64,000 nt of DNA. Origin: Amblyornis subalaris (taxonomy: Eukaryota > Chordata > Aves > Passeriformes > Ptilonorhynchidae). This document shows positions 26,450 through 64,000 of this stretch, piece by piece. The position numbers were made by a program, and so were the translations under genes. The stretch spans positions 8,298,487-8,362,486 of the forward strand of contig JACAXG010000024.1 of NCBI GenBank assembly GCA_018881555.1, in the 5' to 3' direction. Within the stretch, counting starts at the first letter, position 1; each line of letters starts with the position of its first letter. A model generated the notes under the pieces. It made no database searches and was not told where the DNA came from. It worked only from the letters and a program-made list of their open reading frames with translations.

Positions 26450-29400
26450 CTGCATATGAGGAGGGGAAAAAATTACAATTATCCATTTTCTAGCTTTTAC
26501 TGCAATACAGTGTTAGTATAGGTACTAACTAGAGTGTTAGGGTGGTGTTTGGAAGGAAGGCAATTCATAAACATCATGTATATTTGTCTTCTTCTTCCCT
26601 AAGCACCTTTTCATGGCTGTTGTTCTCAGATTTCTTTCCTCACTAGGAATGAGGAAATCTCTACAAATACTGCATCCTCCTTTTTTAAATGGAGGAGCCT
26701 GAATATCAAATTATAGTAGGGACACACAGGAAAAAGGAAAGGGGACAAGTGAGAAGCAGCAAATGAGGAATCCAGTCACAGTGCTTAGTTTATGCCAAGT
26801 CACTCATTCTGACCACCAGATGCAGTTCATATGCAGAAGCAAAATGTTCTGATACAGACAAGACATGTTAATCTGGATAAACCAGAGTAAAGCAAGTACT
26901 TCATATCCCCAAATATACACCATAACCTTTTACTTCTTGCTGTGCTTCATGTGCTCTCTTTTGTAATGCTAATTAGAGGCATCCAAGTGTTTGTCAGTAT
27001 TTTAAGTTATTCAGAAAAAAAAAACCAAGTAGAAAGGTTTTCACTAATTGTTCCTGTTATGCTGTGTAACAAAGACAAAAAAAAATCCTAATGCTTAGCA
27101 AGGAATTTCCACATCAAGACTTGTTACTGGAAGAAATTTACTTACCTAAATTGGTATCTGCTCGTACTAAGAGTTGAGTTTTTTCATTTCCTGCTGGTTT
27201 TAAGTGTAATGTTCCTACACCTTTTTCTTTAAATTCATTATCCTTTTTGTAAAACAGTTTGCATCTGTGGAAAAAAAAATAAAACAAACCCCAAATCCTT
27301 GTTTGTGCAGCCATGCAGAGATGAAATACAAAGATATCTCCCAAATACAGGTATCCATCACAGTAACAATTATCAGCAGTTAACATGCTGTGAATAATAC
27401 AAATCTTTATTCTCCTTGACCTTGTTTTATGTGCTAATGGACAGCACTTGCAGTTCAAAGAGGAAGTGAATTATTTCTTTCAGTATTTAAATTACAAATG
27501 TATTACTTTCAGGGAAAAGTAAATGGCACAGCAACCTGTACTCGGGATCTGTGAGGAGCAATAAACGCAGGCTATTTTAAAATAAAAGATAGAAAACCAT
27601 AAGAACTTGATGCATCATTCTGAAGTTGTAAGAGGACTTCAATGTATAATTTATAAACATTTCTTAAGTGAAGCTCCAATAAACCTAATGTCATTTTAAT
27701 AAATTAGCACACACCTTTCAGATAAAGCTAATGGCTTTTTGTAGCAGGGCAGATTCTGTGCTGAGTGTCAAGCAGACACTGGACTACTGAACATGCTTTG
27801 AAAAACTGCTTCCAGTAGAGCTAGTTTCATGTTGAGCTTAAAAGCACAACTTCTTCACTCCTTCATACAACAACAATCAGCATTTTCCAACTGAAGAGTC
27901 TTATTTTAGCCTATGCAAATCCACTTGGTGGATTTTCCAGCATGACAGTACATGAGTTCTGTGGTACAGGCCCTACTGTTTAAACCTACAAAACCTGATG
28001 AAGGCATAAACATCTTCACTTGTAAAAAGCTGATCACAAGTACAACACAAACTATTAGAGTCGCGTCCAAGATATAGAAGAATTTTAATAAGATCTTACA
28101 TATTCTTGCCTGTAATCAAGTTTTTTACAAGTTCATATGCAATGCGAATTCCTAACAAACCTTACTAATTAGGAAGTCAGAAACATGTCATTAATTATGT
28201 CCTGCAGTGGTGAAGAATAGTAATATGCAGGTATTAATCTTATTTTCCAAGTTAAAGTCACTTACTTCTTTGAGTAGAAAGCATCNTCTTCTTTTATTTC
28301 ATTAACAATGACTTTTGGTGGCTCTTCTTCCTCCTCTTCTCCTTTAAATAGAAAGCTTTAATACGTTAATGTTGTGAGCACAGATTTTGGCACTGTATTA
28401 GAACTCCCTCATGCCCACCATGGTTGACATGGACATGTGGGGCCAGTCAGTGATAACCAGAACACATTTCAGTGCATGTGAGCTCTGTAGCAACTTCAGC
28501 TACAGAATAAAAAAGTTACTTGCTTTTCATTCAGCCCTTAAAGCAACTTCATCCTCATCTTCAGTTTAAGTGGGATGAAAATACAATCAAACCCAAAAAA
28601 TATAAAGCTTAGTAAGTCAAAACCTTCTGTTTGAACAGAAAATAGTTTTCACATTTCAAAGAGTATGCTCCACATATTCAAGTTCCAAGTACAGCACAAT
28701 AAATACTTCCAACAGTCAGGTTTAATTTAGGGGACGGGAATTAGTTGCAGGAATGACAACCAAGAGACAGTGGCAGATTATGCCTTTCCAGCCCCTCAGC
28801 TACTGGGATTTCTATCAGCTTATTGTACCCAGCACAGGCAAAGGAAAGAGTAAAGCTAGCAGGTACTATGTAACTTTGTTGGCCTTACAGTCTGTGAAGT
28901 AAAATGGACTAAGTTGTTCTGTATGTCATGCTTTTAGCTGCAGCGATCTCTTGATAAACCTACTGGGAAAAGCAGTGGGATTGAGAAGTCCAGCAGGCTC
29001 AAAGGTGAACATACCAGCTGCTTTAAATTTCATCACTTCAAGTCCTGTCTTCAGATAAAGGATTATATTCTACTACAGAAAGTATAAATCTGACAGAAAT
29101 ATATAGGTCTTGCTAAGTACATGCTTTTGGGTGTTGCTTAAACACTATATAAGGCTGGGTTCTCCAGACTAGTGGTACAGTTCTGCACTTTCAAATTCAA
29201 GAACAATGATGATCACAGAGTAACAGAATACAGAATTTCCTGAGTTGGAAAGGACCCACGAGGATCATCGAGTCCAACTCCTGGCCCTGCCCAGGACACC
29301 CCAACAATCCCACCCTGTGCCTGAGACCACTGTCCAAAGGCTCCTGGAGCTCTGCAGCCTTGGGGCTGTGACCCTTCCCTGGGGAGCCTGTTCAGTGCCT

Positions 29401-32400
29401 GACCACCCTCTGGGGGAAGAACCTTTTCCTGATGTCCAGCCTAACCCTCCTCTGACACTACTCCATGCCATGACCTCATTCAAGTTAATATTACTGCATT
29501 TTTGTAGTACTCTGAAGTCACATACACTCACAGCATTAAAATAACTATAAATAGAAATAAATACAATTTACCTTTGTCATCACTATTGCCACTTTCTGTC
29601 TGAGCTTCCAATAAACTGGTGGATGGTGCAGTGACAGACCTAGCCTGGCTTGCATCTTTTCCAAACAAACCTGAATTCCCAGGAGAAAATGAGAAACTAC
29701 TAAGTGTTCCTGAACCAAGGGAACCCAAAACAGAACTGTCAACACTCTTGCCAAAATTAAACGAGACGGTTGATGTAGCTCCTAACGATGGGTCTTTTTT
29801 TTCTGATGTAGCTTCATGTTTTTTGTCCGAGGTATCCTCAGTTTTGTTATTAAACAAAAATGTGGAGGCTTGCTGGAGCTTTGAACTCCCAAATGCAGGA
29901 GCAGCCCGCGGGCCGGGTGTCTTGCTACTTTCATTCTCAGAGCCGCTGTCACTGCTGCCTCCGTGCTGCTGCTCGATGCTCGCCAAATACTGCTCGTAGT
30001 CCCTGAAGATGGGGGTCAGGTCGCACAGGGGGTTGGTGTTCACATGCTTCACTATCCAGTCACGCACGGAGCAGTTGAGAGCAGCCAGCTGCTTGTGGTA
30101 GGCACTGGAGCCACACGCCGCACTCGAGGCGCCGCCGGACAAGCAGGGCTGGCTGCCACCATTGGCTCTCAGGCTCGCAGCCTTTTTCTCAGCAAACACA
30201 GCAGCAGTGGGACCATTTGACACTGGGGACCCTGTTACAAGAAAAATCACAGAATTACAGAATATCCTGAGCTGGAAAGGACCTACCAGGATCATCGAGT
30301 CCAACTCCTGCCCTGCCCAGGACACCCCAACAATCCCACCCTGTCCCTGAGAGCGTTGTCCAAATGCTCCTGGAACTCTGACAGCCTTGGGGCTGTGACC
30401 ATACCTTAAGGAGCCAGTTCAGTGCCCAACCACCCTCTGGGGGAAGAACCTTTTCCCAATATCCAACCTAACTCCTGTTCAGTTAATAAGCTCGTTTAAA
30501 AAAATAACACAACAAAACAACACAGATGCTTTGCTGATCTACTGAGAATGTCGTTTAGAACCTTCTTTTTTCCCCAGGAAGCAGAGCCCTCTTAAAAGCC
30601 TAACTAATGTGCTCAGTATTTCTTAATCAAATCACTCATCTTTGCTCAGTTGGGCTCCTTTTGGGTCACCACACTGTGCCCCAGCTACTGCGATGCCAAT
30701 CAGCAGACCCAAGTTTTACATTNAGACAAGTTAGGGATAGACAAAATGGATGGAGCACGCAGGTGTATAAAAAAAATCNAAAGACATCTTGTACAGAACA
30801 TTAAAAAAATACACGTTTTATATACTGCCAAAACCTCCAAAATTTTACAAAGATTTTACAACTTTAGCAAGCTCTAACATTTATTAAATCAAAATACTCA
30901 TCTCTTGCCACTTGTGCTTCAAAACACCCTGAGTGCAGTAGCCCATGATTTTACAGGCTTCTGAGTGTTTCTGTATAAAAAACTCTAAGAAGCAAACTAG
31001 AAAAATTCTCATTGAATATTTCAGTTTCGCCTAATTTATTCAAGCTCACTGAAATCTAAGTTACTCTAAACGTCAAACTCCACCATTTCTGTTCTATGGC
31101 ATAGTGACTCCAAAATCCTCTGGCAGAGTTAACACTCCTGCATCTCCAGCACAAAGGGACAGAACTAATATTCATCACGGAATTCCAAAGCATGAAAGCT
31201 CGACTTGCCAAAGTACATCAAGTGTCTTAAAATGTAGGTGTAACTGTAACAGATAAAATTCTAGTAAGACTGTCTGCTACATCAGACGTACAGGGAAAAA
31301 GGATGAAGACTTTAGTTATGCAGCATGTATTTTTTAACTGAATTCAAATAATTGGGACACTATTTAAATGGAACATGTTACCAGATGCTTTATACTTTTT
31401 GCAGATTGCCTTATGCCAGTGCCTTCCATTTGTGCCTACAAAACTGTTACCTCCAGTATTAGTACAAATATGAACTTCGTTTCCACCTCTTTAAACTGCA
31501 TGCATTTCATAACTTGTCCCTCCAGCACTCTAAAATCTTAAGAAATGTTACAAAGAGAAATAAAGTCTCAAAACCTTAAAACACAACTATAAGAATGGTT
31601 TGAATTTGGTTTTGCACTATTAAAATAACCGTACGGATTTTATGACTGAAAGTGTTGTTAAGTATGTACGCTTATTTAAAACTTACCAAATGCTGATTGT
31701 GTTTCGGAGGTGGTCTTCAAACCGCTGAAAGGAGGAGTGCTAGAGACACTACTGCTTCCATTAGACAGCCCTTCCAAAGGCTTTATTCCTGCACCATTCC
31801 CGAATCCACTGAAGCCACTTCCTCCTTTTCCAGAAGGCAATATAAAGCCCTTGAACCCTTTAAAAGCTCCTCCACTTTCAGACTGGGGAGAAAAAAGAAG
31901 AGACAACCAGTTACATACATCTTCTCCACACAAATCCTACCCCCACTTAATATTCCCGATATCCTCCGGTTATTGCCCCCCTGCTCAGCCTGTCATTCCG
32001 TGCATTACTGTGTCAGCTATGCAAACAAAATTAACAGCTTCCTTATGGCACACACTGCTACTGTTTTCAAAGGACTCACTCAGATGTTTGGTATGAAAAT
32101 AAACTGGGTCTAGGATGTGTTTGACTACCTATTAGACATTCACAGCATCTTGTTTTCTTTAAATAATTACACAGCAATATGTAATTTCAGGTTTATTTTC
32201 AACAACTTTTAGCATTTGCAATGGCAATCAAGAGCCCAATACTTCAATCCACTCATCACTCTGGAGTCACCTATGAAACCTCTGTGACTTACCCAAAATA
32301 TTCTAATGTGACTGATGAAAGAAGCAAAGAGAGACTGTACTTAATCACAAAATATGTATCTCTGCAGTCTTTTCATTACCCAGTTCTGAGCACCGTCTTT

Positions 32401-35781: not shown

Positions 35782-37605
35782 CTGTGTGGAAGAAAAAAAA
35801 AAATCCTAGAAAGAACTGCACAGAAATTAAATTCTAAGTAACAATGATCTTCAATCTGTATTCTTAGAACAAAAAACGGCAATTGCAGTTCATACAGAAG
35901 CAGGTCAAGATTGGAATGACAATCGAAAACCAAGTGTTGTGGCAAAAACAATCAGCAGCACTTGAGATTAAAGTTGTGGTGATCAGCCATATTCGATCCT
36001 AAATTTAAGCAACAATAGAAATGTGCAGGTCAGTTATGGGATAACTTTTCTTTAGCAGATGGAAAAATTCCTTTCAGTACCGTAACTCATCTACTCTCAC
36101 TCTGAAGGGCTACAAAAAACCCCACAGCTGTGGTTAAAACATTCCACATTCCATTCCATGTTGCCTCAGGATACTCATGTAAGCAGCCAAGAAAAAAGTA
36201 AGTTACCTTGTAACATCTAAAAGAAATACTGATGAAGACCCACTGAATCAACTGGGCAGAAAGCTTGGTTAAGACTGAAGACAATGCTCTCCTTTAAAAA
36301 ATGGGATTGGCAGGCCATTACTAATCTGAATGAAAANAAATCACAAATAAGATTGTTTTTCCTCCAAAAGACTCATAAAGCATACCATGGATTTTAGAGC
36401 AATTATTGTAAGCAGACAAGTCATCATTCAGCTGGTTATCTCTTATGATGTACAGCAAAATCAGCTTTGCAGATGAAATCTCTGTAATAGTTTTGAGTCC
36501 CATTTTACAAAAGTACAACTTATCAGCTGTGTACAAAACCAAAGAATGAATCCAGCTACCATGTTTTCTATCTAAAAGACCTAGTAAGCAATCACACTAC
36601 TGGAAATTTATGTGAAAAAGGAGGTTTTTTACTAACTATGATTATATCTTCTGTCACTAAATATGACAACTTTTCAAAGGAAATATGTAATTTTGTTGTA
36701 NTTTACATCTCAAGCAAGCACAAAAATTAAAACGTCTAAAAAACCCCTTGGGTTTGTGATTAAGACCTGCCCAGAAAAAAAAAAATCCACAAATAGATGC
36801 ATTTCAGAGCCAAAAATGGTAACAACACATGGTTACAGAACATCTTGTTTAGATGTTGAAACATTTTAGAACAGTAAATCCAGCAGCACAGCAGTCTTGG
36901 ACATCACACATCCAAGTCCTGAATTTTGGTCTGACAGACATCACAAATAGGGTCAAGTTATTAGAGCTTCTGGAAGTACAGGGACAAAGACTGGCTGTGT
37001 ATACATATTTAAACACCCTAATCCACAGTGTCCTGAAAGTAGATGTCCTTGCTTGATCCCTGGGAGACTATTTTAATCTAACCCACTGAAAACCTAAAAA
37101 GAAGTTATTTTAAAGTCACATTTATTTAAATTATTGTTTCATTACTTTATTTTTATATAGAATGTATTATATTATGTAATATATTTCAATTATAATAACT
37201 TTAAATTAGAATAAATAAAATTATTCTGTACTACTAATATATCCGTAATATGTATATAACATACTATCATATTATTTAAATTTATTAATTTGATTATTAA
37301 ATTAAATATTTGAGTTAGTTAAAGAGCCCTTTAACTACAAAGCCTGTTCCCCACCAAGAAAATAGGGAAAAACTTCCCAGCCTGGGCTCAGGTTCTCCGC
37401 ACCCAGTTGTGTTTACACAGCTTCTCTACAAAAGCACTGTAGAGAATCTAACATATATTAATCTAACATGAATCTAACAGAGAACCTCACGTGAAACAAC
37501 AACCAACGCAAACCCGCATCTGGTTGGTGTTCACAACCTTCACGAAGTTTTCGTAGCACGTGTTCTGAACAGGCTGAGATGGGAGTATTTTGAGAAACAT
37601 AGCAA
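35782..37605 (-). other. NUP50 5' intron, with AT-rich segment
   Basis: No exon seen. About 37,100-37,320 is a very AT-rich low-complexity stretch (repeated ATTATAT and TAAAT). Confidence 0.5.
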
Positions 37606-37830
37606 AGAATCACAGAATATCCCGAAAATGCAAGGGACCTACAAGGATCACCAAGTCCAACTCCCGGCCCTGCACAGACACCCCAACAATCTCCTGTGCC
37701 TGAGAGCATTGTCCAAACGCTCCTGGTGCTCTGGCAGCCTTGGGGCCGTGACCATTCCCTGGGGAGCCTGTTCAGTGCCTGACCACCCTCTGGGGGAAGA
37801 ACCTTCTCCTGATATCTAGCGTAACTCTTG
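37606..37830 (-). repeat. CR1 LINE 3' fragment
   Basis: Starts AATCACAGAATATCCCGA and continues AGGATCACCAAGTCCAACTC to CTCTGGGGGAAGAACC. It is the third sense-oriented copy within the NUP50 transcription unit. Confidence 0.92.
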
Positions 37831-37899
37831 TTCGATTAACAAGCTCCTCTTGTTTAAAAACTAACACAACACAGACGCTTTGCTGACCTACAGAGATCC

Positions 37900-38800
37900 G
37901 CTCAGGAGCTTCGCTGCCCTATTTAACGCAACCGTTTGCGAGCGAGGCTTAGTTTGAGGTTTGCACGGGGCAGCATCACCTGAATACCGTGGGGCCGGAA
38001 CCCCGGCAGTGCTGGAAAGGCCCGCGGTGCTGGAGGGAGCGGAGCGGTGCCGGGCCTCCGCGGGAGGAAGCGGAAGCCGGATGCCGCTGGGGCCACCCCG
38101 CGCTCCCGTCGCTGCGGAGCCGCCGTTCCGCTGTGACTCTCTGCCCCGCTCGCTCCATCCCGGGGANAACGCGCGTTCCCCGCACACCTCAAAGACCCCA
38201 CCCCGCGCGTTTTGAATCCCATGAGCCTCACCGGTGCGACCCCCAAGACCCTCCTGCTCTCCGCACCGCCCCGGGCATGCTTGTTCCCTCCATCCCCACC
38301 CCGCACCCCTGCGCAGGTCCCGCTCCTAGCCCGCTCACCCCTCCCGCCCCTCGCGTGTGGGACCCGCGGGACTCACCCGCTCGGGCGGGCGGTTCTCTCC
38401 CGCCGCGCTGCGCTGTGGGGCCGACGCTGCGGCAGTCGGGAGGCGGGGTCTGCTCGCAGGCTGCACGGTCCCGGGGCGCGCTCAGCATCCCCCGCTGTGC
38501 CCCCGCGGTCCTCGGTGCCGCCCGGCCCGGCCACCCCCGCTGAGTCCGCTGGGGGACGAGCCTCGGTGGGGCTCGAACCGGGAGCACCCCGTGCGCCACC
38601 GCCGTCCNGCGCCCGCCCGCACCGCGCGTGCGCGCGGCGGGGCGGAGCCGGGCCGTGCAGCAGCGGTGCTGAACCGCCGGCGGCCAGTGGGGGCGCGCGC
38701 GGGGGGGCACCCCAACGGCCGCTGTGGGGGAAGGGAGGCCCGTTCGAATGGTGGCTTACGTGACTTCCGGCGGGAGNCGCCGTGTCACCAGACCCTCAGA
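37900..38800 (-). promoter_or_regulatory. NUP50: NUP50 CpG-island promoter and non-coding first exon
   Basis: A dense CpG block between AT-rich flanks, in the correct place for the NUP50 promoter. A good minus-strand donor, GCGG|GTGAGT, at 38,376/38,375 is a candidate end of exon 1. Near 38,625-38,645 GCGCGTGCGCGCG resembles an NRF1 site. At 38,757-38,772 ACGTGACTTCCGGCGG combines a CRE-like half-site with an ETS-type CTTCCGG core. Several CG-rich frames here lack stops by composition only. The exact start site is unknown. Confidence 0.75.
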
Positions 38801-41800
38801 AACAGTTCGGAAAAATAACGCCCCCAATACCGTCTCTTAGTGTCAGCGAGTCAGGCATTGCTTTATCCTTGCCCAAGAGCTGTGTGGGGGTGCCCGAAAA
38901 AATTCTGTCCTCCACACAGACGCTGATACAAAGCTTTTTCACCTATTTTTTAACAAATTAATTTTCATTGGTTTTAAATTATATAATTCATGAAGTAGTA
39001 TTTCCAACACGGGAGGTGCCTCAGGGCGTCTGAGGGGCGGCCGTGCCCTCGGCTATCNCGGGCTCTCCTGCTGTTCAGCCCTGCTTCCTCTTCCCTCCTT
39101 CCCTGCCACTGACTCACTTTTCTTGTTAGTTTTTAATTAATTGTTTTAATTAATCATAACCAGGATATTAATTATAAGCAGTGTGCTGGTGTGTGCACTA
39201 GAGCTGTAGGAAGGCATAGTCCAGAAATTTGCTAAATGGTGGCTTGTTCCAGCAGCAAAAATGATAATTGGAAATAACTACGAGACACGGTGAAAGTCAC
39301 CCAGAGACAGGGGGTTGCATCCAGCTCTCTTCAGCCTGAATGCTGAAAATAAAGATGGTGATTTCATCTCAGTGGGGGACAGAGAACAGCAAAGAGGAGC
39401 TGAAAGAAGGATGCAGCATTGCCCTGGCAAGACACGTTCGATTTGAGCTGAAAAGGTCACTGCCCACATGATTGCATCACCAGGGCCGCTGAAGGTATGA
39501 GGCTGTGACACGCCGTCTGCTTTTACCAAGGGTGAGGCACTGCAAATGTAGTTTGCTGAAAAGAAGCAAGGAAGTTGAATACAGCTATGATGCTGAAATG
39601 TGTGAAGCAAAAAAAGAAAAATATCTTCTTTTTAAAAATACATTTTCTATTAAACTAAACATTTTCTCCATTGTTTGCACATTTTGTTATTCCAGAAGTG
39701 TAGCTTTTAAAATTGCTTTAGCCGTCAACTCTTATTCGTTGTAAGTAAGGCACTCAGAGTCTTGAAGACAAAGTCCATTTGTAAAATGTTCTTTCAATGA
39801 GGAATTTTCCAGGGTCACTTAGTAGAAGCCCAGGCATTTCCCCATTAATTTTTTTTTTATGCTTGTGTGGTTGGACATTGTTGCCTGGAAGGTTTCTGAG
39901 GAATTCCTAGCAAGTATTTTAAGTGGAAATGTGTCTGTTCTGTTGTATCAGGACTGCTGATCTACACTATGCAAAAAAACCTGATGATTAGAAATATTCT
40001 GCCCTGTGTGATAATGCAGGGGTTGGTTCATATTTCTGTTGGCAGGTACCAGGTAACAAACTCGGTGTTGATCCAGGCTTAGAGTGTTGTTACAGGTTTT
40101 CCTTTTGTCATCGTCTCTGGTTTGCAGTATTTACCTGATCAACTGTTAAAAACCCAAGTACCTCAAAATAACTATCTGTAAAAAGGTTTTTTTCTCCCCG
40201 GCTGTTTCTGTCTAGCCCAAAAATTGTAAAAAAGGGAATTAATATCTCCCAGCAGGGAATTGGATTTGCTAAAATGTCACCACCAATCTCTTAATTAGCC
40301 CCTCAAAATACCATGTTGTCTCTTGGTCCTCAGTGGGAAAGAATGTAAGTGGAAATGAAATGGAGTCTTTTCTTAAATAACAAAACCAAATATCTCCTAA
40401 ACAACAAAAAATCACAATTGCATAGTCGGAGGTCATGTGGGAGATACTTTACAAAAGCTGCATTTTGAAATATTGGCTGACTTAGATGTTTGAAAGTTGA
40501 TGGGAATAATAAATAGTAAATACAGTTCTTAAAAAAGGATTAATGTTTACATTAAAAATGACCTTTTCCATTAATATGTATAAAAACTGGAAGAATTTCT
40601 CCTAGTGGTCTATAAGATGTGTTGACTCCAGCTGTTAATCTATTAATTTATGTAAATGTAGGCCTGAAACCTCTTTCCTATATTTTCAATTTATTTTTTC
40701 CAATTCTGCTAAAGCCAAGGTGCCTCAAACTGAGCTGTTCTCCTCAGTGAGGAGGATGGTGGAGAATGTATCTGAACTCCCATTTTTTTAATACTCATGG
40801 AAGGAATGAGCACAACTGTCATTCCTGTTGTCTCTTAATAGCATTGTCATTGCCATAAACTATTTCTGATGTGTTTTGCTTATTTCCAGCACAACAAGGA
40901 CCAAAGGTGGCTGTCTAAGGTAGTTAGAACATTTATAGATATTTTACAGGGATGATGCATAAAGAATGTTAATCTCTGGGCATCAAAGAGCTCTGGAAGA
41001 CATAACACCCATTTCCACAAGAAGACCGAGCTCCACAACATCCTAAAGAGTGTTGGTACAGTAGAGGATCTATATGAATTATTAATGGTTCCTTCTCTAA
41101 AATATTCCAAAAATGAAAATTTCCTATTAACTTGAAAAGGTTTTGTTGGCAAAGAAAGGCAAAAATTACAAATTGAGGACCAGTTGACATGCTTTGTCCA
41201 AAATTAAATTAAATGTTTCCATTCTTTTGGGGGGGGGGAGGGGTGTTTTAATATTTCTTTTAGAAAATTGGGAAAAGGAAAGGAAAATGTAGGTTTTTTC
41301 TGAATTCTTCCCTATTTTGGGGAAGGGGTAAAATTTCAGTAAAACATTCCTCTACTAATATATAATCACTAAATAGAGATCGTGGATTTGTCCAAAGAAG
41401 CCACAGTTCCAAGTTAAAATTCCAAGTCGGGGTATATCTGTTCGGTTTGGTTTCTGCTATGTCAGTTGGAAAAATGCCTGTGAAAAGAGATTTCTTTGAT
41501 GCCAATTTCAAGATTCTTCTGTACGTTATTAGAATCTATTATCATTGTAATAGTAATTACTTCTAAATGAGGTCATTAGCCCTAATTAATATTTAAAAAT
41601 ACACCAAATACACATACAAATAGAGTGTTAAGATGAATCTTGTTCTGAAAGAGTGACATATTTTGTCATAGTAACATATCTCAGCACTCCAAAAGTGCTT
41701 ACAGCACTCTTCCACTCAATCTTAGCTGCAAAGTAGGTCAGGACTGTCAATTTTTCTCATTCTCTCACTGTAAATGTAAATTCTGCTCTCCCAGACTTCA

Positions 41801-43126: not shown

Positions 43127-44131
43127 TGTTATGGGTTTGACAAATGAATTTTTTTTGTCCCATCTAGCAGGGAGACCTGTGGGGGCAGGGAGGGGTTGCC
43201 CGGGAACTAATGGGCGATACTTAAAGACAAAGAAAGTTGCCTGCCCAACCCACATCCCACCATAATTCCCCACCTAGAGAAACAAGAGCTGGGGGTGNTG
43301 CCCAGGGGGTTGTTCCCTGAGATTGCAGCTTATCATCACGAGTGGTGAAAAAGACTTCGAGACTTTAGTGGGAGGGGGCANAGGCCGGGGCTCGGTCTCT
43401 TCTTGGCTCGGCATTCTGCTCAGATGGTCGTGTGTACAGGGAGTGTCAGTTTGCCCCGAGAACACTGCTGCACTGTGACGTCTCCACGGGGGTCATGCCG
43501 CGGCACTGGGTACAGCGTCACGCTGTAACTGTCACCACCCAGAGCTGCTCGCCTCTGCTGTCTCTGTCACCAGCCTGGGTTCTGCTGCACACAGGTCAGC
43601 ACCAGGGTCTGCTTGTCTCTGCTGTTCCTGCCTTCTGCTGGCCCCTCGGTGCGTGATACCGAGGTTCATCGCTCCCCAGTCAAACCTGCCTGCCTGTGCT
43701 GCTTGCTGCCCACTGCCGGGGTTGGTGCTGAGCTGGGCTGCTGCCCCGTGAGTTCGCACCGGGAGCAATTCCCCCCCTCTTCCCCGAGCTGCCATTGCCA
43801 CNTGGAGAGGTCGCAGCACTCGCGCCACAGTGCCCCCTGCAGCTGCAGGGGAGTCACCACAGCCTCTCTGCCCCAACAGAGAATTGCCCAACGAGTGAGA
43901 AAAGACTGTTACTGGGTTTGTCTGTTCTCTTATTGTTGCTGTTTATCTGTCTTGTTGTATGTATATAGATATAGAATCCTAGTAAAGAGCTGTTATTCTT
44001 TTTCCCACATCTTTGCCTGAAAGCCCCGTAATTTCAAGGGTGTAGTAATTTGGAGGGAGGGGGGTCATCCTCTCTATCCCAGGAAGGTTTCCTGCCTTAC
44101 TTGACAGACACCTGTCTTTTGAACCAGGACA
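43127..44131 (+). mobile_element. Solo LTR, TGTTATGGG family, copy 1
   Basis: Begins TGTTATGGGTTTGACAAATG and ends TTTTGAACCAGGACA. Flanks CTGGC (43,122-43,126) and CTGTC (44,132-44,136) look like a 5-base target duplication with one mismatch. It shares the GATACTTAA segment, the GTGATACCGAGGTTCATCGC segment and the GCCCCGTAATTTCAA segment with the copies at 46,426 and 58,969. It is the most diverged of the three and lacks their internal duplication. No retroviral internal sequence is attached. Confidence 0.85.
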
Positions 44132-46425: not shown

Positions 46426-47598
46426 TGTTACGGGCTAGAAAAAAAAATGAAAATTTGTTTCCTTTCCCTTGGGTACCAGGGAGGATATGTAGGTGGGAAG
46501 GGGCTGGCCGGGAATTGATGGGCAATACTTAAGAACAAAAGGGAGTTATCTGTCCAGCTGCATTCCACGTTAATGACACAGAATGGACGGTACTTAAGGA
46601 CGAAAGGAATCACTTGCCCAGCCCAGAAGCCAGGACAATTCCCCCAGTTAAAGAAAAACAAAGACCTCGAAATACTGGCAAGGGGGATGTTTCCCCAGAG
46701 GCTGGAGCATCTTGAGAGAACTGCCCGAGACTTGGGCGAGAGGTGGGTGGAGACCGGGCTTGCCTCACTCTCCGCTCCGCTCGGTGTTCGAGCAGAACGG
46801 TCCTGTCTACAGCGAGTGCCGGTTTCACTCTGGGAACTCTGCTACACTGCTACACTGTCTCCGCCCGCTCCATCCAGAGCACGGATACACTGTGACATCT
46901 CTGAGGGTCCCACAGTGGCACAGGGTACGGAGTTATGCTGTAACCAATTGCCGCCTGGAGCTGCTCGTCTCTGCTGTGCCTGCCTTCTGCTGGTCTGCCG
47001 GTGGGTGATACCGAGGTCCATCGCTCCCCAGTCGACCCTGCCTCTCTGTGCTGCTTGCTGCTTGCTGCCGAGGCTGGTGGAGCCGGGCTGCTGCCCCGTG
47101 GGTTCGCACCGGGAGCGACCCCCCCCCCCCCTGTTTGCCGGAGCCGCCATTTGCCACATGAGGATTGTCGTGCTCGTGCTACAGCGCCCCCTGCAGCCGC
47201 GGGGGAGTCACCGCAGCCTCTCTGCTCCAATGGAGAATCTCCCAACAACACACAAGGAACTGATAAGGGGTTTGTCTGTTCTCTTATGGTTGCCGTTTAA
47301 CTGTCTTGTTCTATATCTATATCTATCTATATAGATATATAGATAGATATAGATATAGATATAGATATAGATATAGATATAGATATAGATATAGATATAG
47401 ATATAGATATAGATATAGATATAGATATAGATATATATATAACCCTAGTAAAGAACTGTTATTCTTTTTACCACCTCTTTGCCTGAGAGCCCCGTAATTT
47501 CAAAGGTATAGTAATTCGGAGGAGGGAGGGAGGTCATCATATATTCAAGAGAGGTTTCCCACCTTCCTTGACAGACACCTGTCCTTCAAACCAGGACA
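46426..47598 (+). mobile_element. Solo LTR, TGTTATGGG family, copy 2
   Basis: Begins TGTTACGGGCTAG and ends TTCAAACCAGGACA. It is flanked by a perfect 5-base duplication ATGAG (46,421-46,425 and 47,599-47,603), which establishes both termini and shows it is a clean solo LTR. It is very similar to the copy at 58,969 and carries an extra internal duplication and an expanded hexanucleotide repeat. A 253-codon open frame within it (46,573-47,334) is broken in the sister copies and is not a gene. Confidence 0.95.
47313..47440. repeat. (ATAGAT)n hexanucleotide microsatellite
   Basis: About 90-100 bases of near-perfect TATAGA/ATAGAT repeats inside LTR copy 2. Sister copies have only TATATAGATATAG (copy 1) or a short (TA)n (copy 3). 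Confidence 0.95.
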
Positions 47599-55747: not shown

Positions 55748-57860
55748 GAGCCCTGCTTTGGGGCTCCCAGCCGCTATGTGCCTGTTTGAACTATTCACCT
55801 ATGAAAGGCAGAACACAGCACTAGGCATGCAGTCACAGTTCCTTGGGGACCAGAGAAGGGCTGTGGCCTACTTTACAAAGCAACTACATGATGTTCAGGC
55901 AAGGCTGGCCTAGCTGTCTGAGTGCAGTAGCTGCTATCATTCTCTTGATCCAGGAATCTCAAAAGCTGACTTTGGGACAAAGCACTGTTGTTTATGTACC
56001 ACATATGGTGCAGTCAGTACTCGAGCAAAAAGGATGCCACTGGCTGTCTCCCAGCTGGATGCTAAAATACCAGGTAGTCTTCCTGGAGCAAGATGATGTG
56101 ACACTCAAAACAACTTCTATCGTTAACCCTGCTATGTTCTTATCTGCCCAACAAGTACAAGGAACCTCAGATTATGATTGCTTACAGACTGTAGAAGACC
56201 TGTATTCCAGCAGGCCTGACTTAGGAGATAGATCCCTGGAAAGACCCAATTAGGAATTGTTCACCGACTGGAGCAGCTTTGTCCGAAATGGAAAATGACT
56301 CTCTAGATATGCAGTGACTATATAGCATGAGGTGATCAAATCGGGAGCACTCCCCTCTGATGTTTCTGCCCAGAAAGCAGACATGATTGCACTCACTCGT
56401 GCTTTGGAATTGAGTAAAGGAAAATGAGTTAACATTTGGACTGATTGAAAATATGCTTTTGGAGTGGTACATGCACACAGGGCCATCTAGACAGAAAGAG
56501 GCCTTTTGACATCTCAAGGCACATAAAACGAAAATGGAAAACAAATCTTAGATTTACTCAAAAGTATCCAGAAACCAGCAGAAGTTGCCATCATGCATTC
56601 CAGAGCACACCAAGTGGGTAAGAACAAACTTGAATTGGGGAATCATTTAGCCGATAAGGCTGCCAAAGAGGCTGCAGAAAAAGGCATATTAGAAAACAAA
56701 GTTTTATCTTTAATACCGCTGCTAAAGATACCTCTCCCAGTAAAAATACTGGAGTATAATGCTAGGGACTGTCAATTAATTGAAATCTTAGAAGCAAAAG
56801 TTGATCCACAAGGCTGGGCAGTTACCCCAACTAGGTAAATTGTAGAGCCAGAACCAATCTCGCATGAAATAGTGGATCACAAACACAAAGCCATTCATTG
56901 GAGTACTGAAGAACTTCTGAAACATTTGCAAAAAATTTATAATTGAGTCTAAAATGGCTCAGATTGTACAATTAAGAATCCGACAACGTATAGTTTGTAA
57001 AAGAAACAACCCTTACACGGCTAACAAGGTAGTGCTAGGGGCCATAAAATCTGTTTCAGGTAAATAATGGCAGATTGATTTTACAGAAAGTGGGGGTATA
57101 AATACCTCCTGATTTTNGTGGATACCAAGGCCAGAAGCCTTCCCTTGTTGCATCAGCCACGCTAGGGAAGTGACTAAAATACTGTTGAATCAAATAATAC
57201 ATAGATTCGGGGTACCTTTAGGAGTGTCATCGACAGAGGTTCCCACTTTATTGTGAAAGTGGTACAACAGTGGGAAAGTGGGAAAGACTTGGGAATAGCT
57301 TGGGATGTTCATACTCCTTATAGGCCCCAAGCTAGTGGTAAAGTAGAGCAAATGAATTATACAATCAAATTGCAATTGAGTAAAATATGTCAGGAAACCT
57401 CCCTGACGTGGCTCCAAGCCTTACCTGTTGCTCTACTTTGAATTAGAATTCAGCCGTGGGGCACCAGCAAAATGAGCCCCTGTGAGCTGCTATATGGTTG
57501 ACCTTACCAAGTACCACACATTCCAGGAAGCACACATGTAAAAGGAGGTGTCGATTTGAATAATTACCTCATTTCTCTTAGTAAAATCTTACAGGATTTG
57601 CAGCAAGCAGTGGTGATCTCCAGACTGATGGGATTGGACGCACCAATGCGGTATTTCCAAGCAGGAGACTGGGTCTACTTGAAAGACTGAGAAACTGCTC
57701 CACTCCACCCAAACTGAAAAGGACCCTTCCANGTACTATTGACAACTTTTACCGCATTGAAATCGGATGGAGTAAAATCATTGATACATTATTCCAGAAT
57801 TAAAAGGGCTGAAGCCCTTTGGGTAATTGAACAGTTGTCTGAGAAAAAACAAGATGCTTA
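55748..57860 (+). pseudogene. pol: Pol pseudogene: RT connection, RNase H and integrase
   Basis: Starts within the reverse transcriptase thumb/connection region; the palm is absent. RNase H spans about 56,250-56,690 (FTDWSSF near the start, IWTD in the middle, HSRAHQ and NHLADKAAK at the end). Integrase follows to about 57,860, with QIDFT near 57,070, a region near 57,300-57,430, and a gammaretroviral-type C-terminal KGPF motif near 57,717. In-frame stops and frameshifts are frequent. Confidence 0.8.
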
Positions 57861-58498: not shown

Positions 58499-60102
58499 TG
58501 TCACGGTGGTTCAAGCCCTGTCGGGAAGGAGGCCGGCCCGGCCACAGTGGTGGGCGGTTTCCAGGGTCTGAGCCACCCACATCTCCTCCCCCTGAGGGGC
58601 TGATTGATGGGTATCCCTGTATGGTTAAAGTTCCAGACTTTCCGTTTAAATTGTACTCTCCATTGGATCCCTTCCCTAAGTCCCTCCTTCCCTCTCTTCC
58701 CATTTGATATCCTCCTATCCCTCACCNACCTACCCTCAGATTATTGGTCTGTATGCTCTTCCCGCCCCCGTTGCTATCCTCATAAGCTCTGGCACCCCAG
58801 AGCCATTTTGGTTCTCTGGTCCCTGACCCCTTGGCAAATAAACTGCGTGCCGAGACCACATCAGAGACCCGTCTCCTTCTTTACTGCTTCCCGCCGCTTC
58901 TAAGAACTGTGCTAAGAGTGTTCACAGCGTCTGCTATCCCGGACCGTGAGAAGTGCCAAAGTCGTCGCTGTTATGGGTTAGGAAAAAAAAAAGAAATGAA
59001 AATTTGTTTCCTCTCCCCTGGGGTACCAGGGAGGCTGTGCAGTTGGGAAGGGGCTGGCCGGGAATTGATGGGCGATACTTAAGAACAAAAGGGAGTTCAG
59101 CTGCATTCCACGTTAATGACACAGAATGGACGGTACTTAAGGACAAAAGGGACCACTTGCCCAGCCCAGAAGCCAGGACAATTCCCTCAATTAAAGAAAA
59201 CAAAGACTTGGAAATACTGAAGGGGGATGTTTCCCCAGAGGCTGGAACATCTCGAGAGGACTGCCAGAGACTTGGGCAAGAGGTGGGTGGAGACCGGGGC
59301 TTGGCTCACTCCCCACTCTGCGTTCGGTGAGGGCAGTTGTGTCTGCAGCGAGTGCTGGTTTTCGCTCTGGGAACACTGCTACACTGCGACGCCTCTGCCG
59401 GCTGGTTCCAGAGCACGGATACACTGTGACATCTCCGAGGGTCCCGCTGCAGCACAGGGTACAGAGTTATGCTGTAACCAACCTCCAGCCGGAGCTGCTC
59501 CTCTCTGCTGTTTCCTGCCTTCTGCTGGTCTGTCGGTGAGTGATACCGAGATCCATCGCTCCCCAGTCAACCCTGCCTGCCTGCACTGCTCGTTGCCCGC
59601 TGCCGAGGTTGGTGGAGCCGGGCGGCTGCCCCGTGGGTTCACACCAGGGGCGACCTTCCCCCCTTTCCCATTCGCCGGAGCCGCCATTGCCGCGTGAGGG
59701 TCGTCGCGCTCACGCCACAGCGCCCCCTGCAGCTGCGGGGGAGTCACCGCAGCCTTTCTGCCCCAACGGAGGGTTTTTCCCAACAACACACAAGGAACTG
59801 ATAAGGGGTTTGTCTGTTCTCTTATGGTTGCCGTTTAACCGTCTTGTTTTATATATATATATATAATTTATATAACCCTAGTAAAGAACTGTTATTCTGT
59901 TTACCACATCTTTGCCTGAGAGCCCCGTAATTTCAAAGGTACAGTAATTTGGAGGAGGGAGGGGGTCATTCCTGTGCTCAAGGGAGGTTTTCGACTTGAC
60001 AGACACCTGTCCTTCTAACCAGGACAGTCGCTAAAAGTGCGCCTGCCCGGGACTGCTTCTGGAAGGCTGCGGCATCCTAACACTGAAAGCATGGCCGCGG
60101 CA
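58499..60102 (+). mobile_element. Solo LTR (outer), 6-base duplication, inserted in env
   Basis: Runs from TGTCACGGTGGTTCAAGCC to GCATGGCCGCGGCA, flanked by GGTTTT on both sides (58,493-58,498 and 60,103-60,108). AATAAA lies at 58,837. Six-base duplications fit class II (ERVK-type) elements. Its own length is about 546 bases without the nested LTR at 58,969-60,026. The sequence 58,499-58,968 and 60,032-60,102 has no similarity to the provirus. Confidence 0.85.
58969..60026 (+). mobile_element. Solo LTR (inner), TGTTATGGG family, copy 3
   Basis: Begins TGTTATGGGTTAGG and ends TTCTAACCAGGACA. A perfect duplication GTCGC flanks it (58,964-58,968 and 60,027-60,031). It lies inside the outer LTR and is the youngest layer here. 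Closest to copy 2 (46,426). Confidence 0.95.
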
Positions 60103-60108
60103 GGTTTT

Positions 60109-60612
60109 CACCCCAGCTAGAAGTAAGTGAATTAGAAAAGACAATAGGGAACATTTCTGCTACCATAGAATATATAGAAAATCCTACAATATATGCCATT
60201 ACTGCATTGCAGGAAGAGGTCAAGAGCTTGTCACAAGTTGTTTTACAAAACCAAATAGCACTAGACCTTTTAGCATGGCAAGGAGAAGTATGCATTGTCA
60301 ATAACACCAGTTGCTGTGTATACATTAATCAGAGTGACAGAGTGTCTACAGCTGTCCAGGAAATCTGGAAACAAACCCAAATTTTACAACACACTGCTCA
60401 AGATGATACCTTCTGGAGATTTGAAGAATCAAACTTACCTCGTGGTTACCCAGGTGGATTGGTTAAAACATCTGTTTACAATCGTCACCATAATAATTAC
60501 TGTATGTGTTTTAGCTTGCATCATGTTTCANTGTTATAGCTGTTGTAATGCCTTACACTATAAAATGAAACACAGATATCAAGAGACTAGTTCCTGTAAG
60601 GAACTTAGTCTC
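60109..60612 (+). pseudogene. env: Env pseudogene, transmembrane subunit
   Basis: The region has heptad-like sequence, a LQNQIALDLL segment and a CX6CC motif (CIVNNTSCC) at about 60,291-60,317. These are typical of gammaretrovirus-type transmembrane subunits, in which CX6CC pairs with a surface-subunit motif. A hydrophobic anchor (TIVTIIITVCVLACIMF) lies in a different frame, so a frameshift falls near 60,400-60,450. An N occurs at 60,531. The N-terminal part of the subunit, including any fusion peptide, is not identifiable. Confidence 0.8.
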
Positions 60613-61787: not shown

Positions 61788-61850
61788 ATGTAGGTTCACT
61801 TTCCCTTTTAATCTTACTACAGGAGTGCTTCTCCAACACTCCTGGCATCG

Positions 61851-62530
61851 TGTTGGAGGTTCTCAATCAGAGAGGAGGAACAGACGCAACTTTGACAATT
61901 TATTGCTAAAATAACAAACAGACCAGTCTCAGTGTGGCGTGAGATTTCATCAATACATTGTAAAATGGCGAATGTCACAGGACTCAATGTTGAACAAGAA
62001 TTTATAGTGTTTTAGACCAATAGGTTACTGAGACGACTATTGTTTTGACTTTTTGACTTATCTTAGCTGGACCTGCCACCTGCAATGCGGCAGTATTTCC
62101 ATGAATCACTCATCAAGTCACATACTCATAGATACCTCTATTGTAACATCTAAATTCTTTACTTAAACTATAACTTGACTTAACTGTGGTAGAAAGGGAC
62201 AGGCGGACGGAAGATCACGCGATGTGACGGAAAGCAGGAGCAGCATGGAATCTTTCCTCCCTTCATTCCTTTGTGATAAGAGCATGCAGACCCCTCTAAC
62301 CCCAGTAGTTTTCCACTCCTTACTAACTCCAGCTATCCCACAGTCCCCTTTTCCTGACGTAGTAAAGCCCCTCACTATTTAACCTCATGAGATAAGGTAA
62401 TAAATGCCATTTGACCATCCACCACATTGGTGTCTGTGCGTCCATGGCCCGAGTGGCCACGGGGTAGGCCGGGCTGCCGTGCTAGGCTTCTTGAAACCAG
62501 GTCGCCTTGTCTTCTTATCAGAAGGCAACA
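61851..62530 (+). mobile_element. 5' LTR of class II ERV at right edge
   Basis: Ends TGTTG (61,851) and CAACA (62,530) form a perfect 5-base inverted repeat. A CCAAT motif lies near 62,019, a weak TATTTAA near 62,375 and AATAAA at 62,399-62,404. The primer binding site starts three bases after the end. About 680 bases. The 5' end is inferred; the 3' LTR and target duplication are outside the window. Confidence 0.7.
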
Positions 62531-62533
62531 TAC

Positions 62534-62551
62534 TGGTGCCGAAACCCGGGA
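62534..62551 (+). promoter_or_regulatory. Primer binding site, tRNA-Phe type
   Basis: TGGTGCCGAAACCCGGGA is complementary over 18 bases to the recalled 3' end of vertebrate tRNA-Phe (..TTTCGGCACCA). Placement three bases after the LTR supports it. Confidence 0.85.
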
Positions 62552-62683
62552 TAAAAAGGGAAAAAGAAGAAGAAAAAGAAGAAAAGCTCGGGCAACGGGG
62601 ATCACCTGGACAAGAGATAGCGGCCGAAGCAGCTAAGCTGACTTCAGGCGGGGAAGACGTTCCCAAGAGGAGCCACGATCACC

Positions 62684-64000
62684 ATGGAAGCAGTCGCAAA
62701 GGTCGTGAGTTCACTCTATAAACAGTGGGGAATTAAGTGTAAGCTCAAGGATTTTTATCTTGCCTTAGCAAGACTCTTAGAGCTTGGGGCTATTGAACGT
62801 CCAGTAGAAATATTACATCCCNAGGTGTGGGAGAAATGTACCAACGCTTTAGCAGAGGATACTAAGTCGTCAGGCAGTAGCAAAGGTTTAAAAGGGTGGG
62901 GAAAAGTAGAAACGGCTTTACGCCAGGCGCTGGAACAGCAAGAGACTTGGAGTGCCGCGCGTGCATGTTTATTAGTTACCCCGAAGCTGGGGGTGGGGGC
63001 TATGACACAAACGGATTCCGAGAGCGGTCTATCTGAGAGCGGGGGTTTGCGGGGACCGGGCGCGTTTCCCTCCTCCCCGAACCCGAATCCAAACGCCCCG
63101 GGGCCCCCGGAAAACTTCCCGATCCTCCCGCCGAGCCCGCCGGGTCCACCCCTCCCCCCAGAAACTTCCCAAACGTCCACGGCTTCTCCATCTGTCTCTC
63201 CGCCGCCTGTTAACGATCCAGTGCTAGAAGCACAGCAACGTGCGCGATCTTTTTGGGAAGAATTAACAAACGAAGCTAGGGAAATCGAGAGAACAGCTAG
63301 AGAGGAGGCGAAGCTGGCCTCCCCCCCGCCCTATGNGAAAGATGGCGCCGGCGACCAAGGAGATGGGCGGGGCCAGAGTTTCAGCGGCGGGAACGAACAA
63401 AAGCTGCGAGTGTTTGCTGCTGCGCAGGCGCGGGGAGNGGGGGAGACCTCCCCCTGCGGGAGGCAGAGCAAGCCCAGGGGGCGGGATCGGCACCACCCCC
63501 AAGGGGAGGAGCGGGGCCGGAGCCGTAACAAAAAGCACAGGACCCCGGAAGTGCTCTGGCACTCGGTTTCCGGCTCTGAGTCCGACAGCAGCTCCCCGAG
63601 CTCTGCTGAGTTGTCGGAGGCTGACAGGGACACAGACTCAGAGGAAACAGAGGCGATACAATTTAAAACGAAAACGAATAAACCTTCAAATTACACCGGA
63701 AAGCAACCACAATACAAATTCACTGACTGGGGAAAGATAAAAATAGCTTGCACAGAATGGATGCCCTCAGCTGCAGTTCATGCCTTCACAGTGAGAGTCA
63801 CTGGGCAAGACGGAAACCAGCAACAGCTGGAAGCAGCAGCTGTGGTCTTGGCGTGCGGACTCTTCCAGGAGGAACACCTCAACATCGTAACAGATTCTAT
63901 ATTCGTGGCGAGGCTCTGCCTAGCCATGTCAGGACCAGGTGTGTCAACATCTGCAGCAGCCCTAATGCTGGAAGAAGCACTCTCCTCGCGACAGGGCACC
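62684..64000 (+). CDS. gag: Uninterrupted Gag-RNase H fusion frame of class II ERV (partial at window edge)
   Basis: The frame is open for 439 codons from an ATG in ideal context (ACCATGG) to the window edge. Residues 1-~100 resemble an alpha/betaretroviral matrix domain. Residues ~118-185 are Pro/Ser-rich. A PPPY late-domain-like motif lies at 214-217, followed by a Gly/Arg-rich, then Ser/Glu/Asp-rich stretch. Residues ~340-375 look like the beginning of capsid. From about residue 382 it continues as RNase H (LEAAAV, then VTDS with Asp404). The rest of capsid, nucleocapsid, protease, most of RT and the first RNase H strand are absent, so the first catalytic aspartate is not seen. Ns affect residues 47, 218 and about 251. 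One N could hide a stop (NAG, codon 47). Most likely an internally deleted provirus; a functional fusion is not excluded. Confidence 0.8.
   Translation, partial: MEAVAKVVSSLYKQWGIKCKLKDFYLALARLLELGAIERPVEILHPXVWEKCTNALAEDTKSSGSSKGLKGWGKVETALRQALEQQETWSAARACLLVTPKLGVGAMTQTDSESGLSESGGLRGPGAFPSSPNPNPNAPGPPENFPILPPSPPGPPLPPETSQTSTASPSVSPPPVNDPVLEAQQRARSFWEELTNEAREIERTAREEAKLASPPPYXKDGAGDQGDGRGQSFSGGNEQKLRVFAAAQARGXGETSPCGRQSKPRGRDRHHPQGEERGRSRNKKHRTPEVLWHSVSGSESDSSSPSSAELSEADRDTDSEETEAIQFKTKTNKPSNYTGKQPQYKFTDWGKIKIACTEWMPSAAVHAFTVRVTGQDGNQQQLEAAAVVLACGLFQEEHLNIVTDSIFVARLCLAMSGPGVSTSAAALMLEEALSSRQGT

What the first reader, a model, noticed from the sequence alone, without database searches (positions are those of the whole stretch)
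62684..64000. Intact 439-codon frame joins Gag N-terminal region directly to the C-terminal half of RNase H
All other retroviral genes in the window are riddled with stops, but this frame is fully open across a structured junction (about residues 375-382) between a capsid start and RNase H. An internal deletion would be in frame only one time in three, and openness over more than 1.3 kb suggests youth or constraint. Products of this type (matrix, PPPY motif, partial RNase H) could act as dominant interfering Gag or drive a non-autonomous element. The plain explanation is a recent deleted provirus.
Basis: partly seen in the sequence, partly recalled or inferred. Interest (0 to 1): 0.75.

Follow-up and report, generated by a model that had tools for sequence, protein, structure and literature searches.

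The report
Internally deleted young songbird endogenous retrovirus
This is the first part of a fairly young bird endogenous retrovirus in which a large internal deletion happens to join the start of one viral gene in frame to a piece of another, which is an ordinary kind of damaged provirus unless many copies are found to share the same joint.

Summary
A 439-codon frame (62684-64000, +) is open to the window's end and joins Gag to a piece of RNase H. It follows an LTR (61851-62530, bounds read by eye) and a primer binding site. About 380 codons are a Gag N-terminal region (matrix domain, proline-rich linker, PPPY) matching gene models from six passerines. Gag ends just before the folded capsid domain starts. 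RNase H begins at codons 380-382, after its first catalytic Asp: identity to 51 RNase H relatives is 82% from residue 380 on, 17% to its left. Both parents have Gln-Gln there, so one short-homology deletion of capsid, nucleocapsid, protease, RT and the start of RNase H explains the joint. None of 57 proteins retrieved carries both halves. Youth (CpG-rich, uninterrupted) is enough to explain the open frame; only 'in frame' (one in three) needs luck. A dominant-interfering Gag is unlikely because capsid and nucleocapsid are absent. A non-autonomous element like mouse IAP 1-delta-1 is not excluded: copy number is unknown because the genome search did not complete. One N (62822) could hide a stop. 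Verdict: probably a recent deleted class II provirus, low interest.

The parts
61851..62530 (+). 5' LTR, 680 bp, TGTTG...CAACA ends; AATAAA at 62399, TATA-like at 62003
   Evidence: Ends read by eye and printed (sequence). No second copy in the window (only matches of 14-37 nt), so the bounds rest on the terminal inverted repeat and the adjacent primer binding site
62534..62551 (+). Primer binding site, 18 nt; matches tRNA-Phe 3' end (recalled, not tested)
   Evidence: Sequence, 3 nt after the LTR; tRNA identity from memory
62684..64000 (+). Open Gag/RNase H fusion frame, 439 codons, runs off the window
62687..62935 (+). Matrix (Retroviral M) domain, residues 2-84
   Evidence: PF02813 E=1.6e-5, 25.6 bits against cut-off 25; solved matrix proteins 5kza, 5kz9, 6ccj and 1a6s, E 1.6e-6 to 7e-5
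63323..63334 (+). PPPY motif (late-domain type, by recall), residues 214-217
   Evidence: PPPY in P0001, P0002 and P0004, PPPC in P0003
63818..63826 (+). Deletion junction, codons 379-381 (Gln-Gln-Gln): Gag ...GNQQ / RNase H ...QQLEA
63827..64000 (+). RNase H fragment, residues 382-439; keeps the second and third catalytic acidic positions (E383, D404), lacks the first
   Evidence: 93% identity over 59 residues to Junco hyemalis Pol (P0006); which positions are catalytic is recalled

Best explanation
The 5' part of a class II (ERVK/alpha-beta-like) provirus of a bird, most likely a passerine, that suffered one internal deletion from just before the folded capsid domain to about one quarter into RNase H. 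The two ends were joined at a short Gln-Gln-coding homology, by template switching during reverse transcription or by end joining in the germ line (not distinguishable here). The in-frame result is a one-in-three accident. The frame is open because the insertion is young, not because it is maintained. If expressed it would make a membrane-targeted Gag remnant unable to assemble, with a catalytically dead RNase H piece. Shown: the anatomy, homology on both sides, and absence of capsid, nucleocapsid, protease and RT between the joined points. Inferred: one event, youth, no function.
For: Gag side: P0001 54% identity over residues 1-382; P0002 48% and P0003 47% over 1-381; P0005 50% over 168-384. 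RNase H side: 51 of 57 retrieved proteins match it, 6 match Gag, 0 match both. Over the 51, identity is 82% from residue 380 on, and 17% left of it in the 41 that extend there. Three Gag relatives read GNQQR and one GSQQR; 33 of 51 RNase H relatives carry VQQLEA; the window reads GNQQQLEA. LTR and primer binding site directly upstream. CpG observed/expected is 0.75 in the frame against a mean of 0.22 in 187 windows of 1.3 kb before the LTR. The expected decay at low divergence permits an open frame. Recent ERVK solo-LTR bursts and ERVK expression in passerines are published (PMC11009239, abstract and section list seen).
Against: No parent DNA of the same family could be fetched, so the homology at the breakpoint and the number of events are inferred from protein relatives. 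CpG richness is not unique: five overlapping windows within 37051-39650 reach 0.83-0.93, and the RNase H end of the frame has only 0.49. The 3' LTR lies outside the window, so age by LTR divergence is untested. An assembly chimera of two copies is not excluded. The frame also lacks 22 residues that P0001 has after residue 251, so the junction is not its only difference from its relatives. The M-domain score is only 0.6 bits above the cut-off, and none of the six Gag relatives reaches that cut-off.
Confidence: 0.87

Rival explanations
1. A non-autonomous, mobile deleted subfamily whose in-frame Gag-Pol fusion helps its own RNA to be copied, like the mouse IAP 1-delta-1 subtype.
For: Same general anatomy: LTR, primer binding site, leader and Gag start kept, in-frame Gag-to-Pol joint. 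IAP 1-delta-1 sets the precedent: a 1.9 kb deletion, a novel Gag-Pol fusion, helping retrotransposition in cis while needing Gag and Pol in trans (PMC6466679 and PMC7411935, passages seen).
Against: 0 of 57 retrieved proteins carry the joint, though protein databases would miss unannotated copies. A canary Gag-plus-Pol gene model (P0057) has other joints and, in my reading, looks like a spliced prediction. Copy number was never measured.
Confidence: 0.07
2. A co-opted host gene or restriction factor: a Gag remnant kept by selection that interferes with related retroviruses.
For: Open frame with matrix domain and PPPY.
Against: No capsid or nucleocapsid to co-assemble or be recognised; none of 57 retrieved relatives has the same fusion; youth is enough to explain openness.
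Confidence: 0.02
3. An assembly chimera: two proviral copies collapsed or mis-joined.
For: Single Ns are scattered through the window, 3 of 41 within 62534-64000 (chance about 0.07).
Against: The N excess is weak; the joint is clean and in frame at shared Gln codons, as a real deletion would give. Neither point excludes a chimera.
Confidence: 0.04

Closest known systems
Mouse IAP 1-delta-1 subtype
   Same: ERV with a deletion that creates an open Gag-Pol fusion frame (passages of PMC6466679, PMC7411935)
   Different: IAP 1-delta-1 is a multicopy mobile subtype with a cis effect reported. Here one copy is seen, the capsid domain is gone, and copy number and activity are unknown
Passerine ERVK-type proviruses (Gag models in Taeniopygia guttata, Molothrus aeneus, Ammospiza nelsoni, Prinia subflava; Pol in Junco hyemalis and others)
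   Same: Sequence family of both halves
   Different: None of the 57 retrieved proteins has the Gag/RNase H joint
Lonchura striata Gag-Env model (P0005) and Serinus canaria Gag-plus-Pol-pieces model (P0057)
   Same: Annotated frames joining the same Gag to a distant retroviral gene: Gag_p24 plus TLV_coat in P0005, integrase zinc-binding domain in P0057
   Different: Different partners and breakpoints; possibly spliced gene predictions (my reading)
Alpharetrovirus matrix protein (Rous sarcoma virus type by recall; chains 5kza, 5kz9, 6ccj, 1a6s)
   Same: M domain alignable over residues 1-94
   Different: Distant match, E 1.6e-6 at best; the Pol piece is nearest to ERVK-named bird Pol

Membership tests
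Class II ERV (ERVK/alpha-beta-like) provirus | LTR with TG...CA ends followed by a tRNA primer binding site | tested here: met
   Read; only the 5' LTR is in the window; the tRNA match is recalled
Class II ERV (ERVK/alpha-beta-like) provirus | Retroviral M domain in Gag | tested here: met
   PF02813 0.6 bits above cut-off; solved matrix proteins
Class II ERV (ERVK/alpha-beta-like) provirus | ERVK-type Pol | tested here: met
   Many of the matches are named ERV group K or POK Pol; fragment only, below the Pfam cut-off, and no solved structure matched it significantly (best E 1.3, an unrelated enzyme; a Pol chain E 2.2)
Class II ERV (ERVK/alpha-beta-like) provirus | Complete gag-pro-pol-env between two LTRs | tested here: not met
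   Capsid to early RNase H missing; env and 3' LTR outside the window, not tested. The assignment is therefore to a defective copy
IAP 1-delta-1-like non-autonomous element | In-frame Gag-Pol fusion made by deletion | tested here: met
   up to the window's end
IAP 1-delta-1-like non-autonomous element | Multiple copies sharing the same junction | not tested
   The genome search did not complete; 0 of 57 proteins share it
IAP 1-delta-1-like non-autonomous element | Mobilisation in trans, cis help by the fusion protein | not testable with these tools
   Needs experiments
Active RNase H | First catalytic Asp in the first strand (DASS in 38 of 51 relatives; others, such as P0006, begin after it or were not examined) | tested here: not met
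   DASS absent from the fusion; catalytic role recalled
Dominant-interfering Gag | Capsid able to co-assemble or be bound | tested here: not met
   Gag_p24 begins one residue after the Gag match ends in P0001

The most novel reading that the evidence does not exclude
The element belongs to an avian non-autonomous ERVK subfamily defined by this joint, in which a capsid-less matrix/PPPY protein fused to truncated RNase H (and perhaps, beyond the window, integrase) is selected because it favours copying of its own RNA by full-length relatives: a bird counterpart of IAP 1-delta-1.
Probability: 0.06. Interest if true: 0.6.

Novelty: new member of a known kind. Interest (0 to 1): 0.2.

Why it matters
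As it stands it is one more young, internally deleted provirus in a bird lineage known for recent ERVK activity. It would matter if the joint recurs at many loci: that would be an independently evolved Gag-Pol fusion subfamily and a test of whether such fusions help their own copying.

Tried and rejected
Chance open frame: rejected (0 of 500 shuffles reached 439 codons; homology). Another copy of the LTR or of the frame in the window: none found by self-comparison or with the 48 proteins then in hand. Viral contigs (IMG/VR): 2 pattern matches, no relative confirmed. Constraint by dN/dS: not possible, since no homologous DNA was reached. Junction-focused protein search (residues 345-438): 50 proteins, none with Gag. 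Gag-focused search (residues 1-345): 6 proteins; one, the canary P0057, has Pol pieces but other joints. The protein searches consider only proteins of 0.55-1.75 times the query's length; searches scored only the 7997 and 7995 candidates sharing most words, one search scored 525. Matches put down to composition: SR-25 and PNM8A, both far below cut-off, and a Mediator subunit, E 0.011. A two-copy 23-nt repeat linking 62685 and 63828 (74%) was taken as chance. Papers: the titles and abstract starts listed (20 of 405; 20 of 20; 3 of 3; 15 of 311; 12 of 38; 9 of 10) describe no such joint in birds. Only the abstract and section list of PMC11009239 and passages of PMC6466679 and PMC7411935 were seen, so this is no proof that it is unpublished.

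Full report
What is there. The frame starts at ATG 62684 and is open to the window's last base, 439 codons. It lies in the longest stop-free stretch of the window (453 codons; next 296) and beyond shuffled expectation (0 of 500). Upstream lie a 680-bp LTR, 61851-62530, with TGTTG...CAACA ends, a 3-nt spacer and an 18-nt primer binding site, 62534-62551 (read by eye, printed), which by recall fits tRNA-Phe. The window cuts the element off at its right end, so its stop, integrase, env and 3' LTR are unseen. Homology calls used 62684-63998, 438 residues.

Gag side. Residues 2-84 match the retroviral M domain (PF02813, 25.6 bits against a cut-off of 25) and solved virus matrix proteins (best E=1.6e-6). 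None of the six Gag relatives reaches that Pfam cut-off: P0002 and P0004 fall below it, the other four show no match at E up to 0.1. Five gene models, from Taeniopygia, Molothrus, Ammospiza, Prinia and Lonchura, match Gag; a sixth, from Serinus, came from a Gag-only search. The Lonchura model starts at query residue 168 and so lacks the matrix part. PPPY is shared with three of the four models in the alignment, the fourth having PPPC. The window's frame lacks 22 residues that P0001 has after residue 251. The Gag match ends at residues 381-384 in the four models that reach the joint; P0004 and P0057 end earlier, at 300 and 314. In P0001 it ends at residue 389 and Gag_p24 starts at 390. The frame therefore keeps matrix and linker but no folded capsid.

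RNase H side. Of 57 distinct proteins retrieved match the RNase H side, 6 the Gag side and none both. The nearest is Junco hyemalis Pol, 93% over 59 residues. The 51 alignments start at residues 346 to 406. Those starting before 380 (41 of 51) run into the Gag side with only 17% identity there, against 82% from 380 on for all 51. The Pfam match covers profile positions 37-73 of 141 and stays below the cut-off, as a fragment should; no solved structure matched the piece significantly. The motif DASS of the first strand, in 38 of 51 relatives, is missing, so by recalled RNase H chemistry the piece cannot be active.

The joint. Three Gag relatives read GNQQR and P0003 reads GSQQR; 33 of 51 RNase H relatives carry VQQLEA; the window reads GNQQQLEA. 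The breakpoint sits in codons 379-381 within a short stretch that both parents share as Gln-Gln. One deletion is the simplest account. It would be in frame one time in three. Out of frame, about 380 codons of Gag would still be open, so the remarkable part is only the last 58 codons.

Age and constraint. With a transition bias of 4 and an assumed indel rate of 0.1 per substitution (CpG hypermutability not modelled, N codons left out), the probability of staying open is about 0.25 at 1% divergence, 0.06 at 2% and 0.02 at 3%; with substitutions alone it is 0.08 at 5%. CpG observed/expected is 0.75 in the frame, 0.93 in the leader, 0.51 in the LTR and 0.49 in the RNase H end, against a mean of 0.22 in 187 windows of 1.3 kb before the LTR; five of these windows, all within 37051-39650, reach 0.83-0.93. 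This fits a young insertion but does not prove it. Selection could not be tested. The N at 62822 leaves a stop possible.

Surroundings. Ten of the 159 stop-free stretches of 80 codons or more were put to Pfam; one, 60087-60536, is an env transmembrane piece of gammaretrovirus-like type (TLV_coat, E=3.6e-11). Short Pol-like pieces near 56527-57687 were seen by eye only. They look like an older, different provirus.

How it works. Most likely it does not. A matrix/PPPY protein without capsid and nucleocapsid cannot form a Gag lattice (established retrovirology, recalled), which argues against a dominant-interfering Gag. The nearest functional precedent is mouse IAP 1-delta-1, where a deletion-made Gag-Pol fusion helps retrotransposition in cis (passages of PMC6466679 and PMC7411935). 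Whether this bird element has copies with the same joint is the decisive question, and the genome search that would have answered it did not respond in ten attempts.

Verdict. Observation confirmed with corrections; most likely an ordinary deleted young class II provirus; interest 0.2. Odds are as first drafted: the recount changed wording and numbers, not the balance.

Noticed in passing
60087-60536 (+): Env transmembrane piece of gammaretrovirus-like type (TLV_coat, E=3.6e-11), with RNase H/integrase-like pieces by eye at 56527-57687: probably an older, different provirus upstream.
   Followed up: partly
43609-44131, 46439-47598, 58988-60026: Three related repeat copies, about 80-87% identical over aligned pieces; the second holds a TATAGA-type simple repeat near 47330-47440, and the third lies between the Pol-like and env pieces. 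The three reading frames tested show no Pfam match.
   Followed up: partly
61831-61858: A 9-bp perfect inverted repeat spans the LTR's left edge (CTCCAACAC / GTGTTGGAG); it could mark a neighbouring LTR end or be chance.
   Followed up: no
29531-30418 (-): Second longest stop-free stretch (296 codons), overlapping a repeat (30240-30547) seen also at 29215-29448 and 37593-37896; no Pfam match.
   Followed up: no
37051-39650: CpG-rich stretch (observed/expected 0.83-0.93), perhaps a host CpG island.
   Followed up: no
whole window: 41 single Ns, spread out, perhaps masked heterozygous sites.
   Followed up: partly
P0002, P0004, P0005, P0047, P0057: Passerine gene models holding Gag of this family under names such as fibrous sheath CABYR-binding protein-like, skin secretory protein xP2-like and serine/arginine repetitive matrix protein 1-like; P0005 joins Gag to Env, P0057 Gag to Pol pieces. 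P0047, a falcon olfactory receptor-like model, ends in a stretch matching this RNase H.
   Followed up: partly
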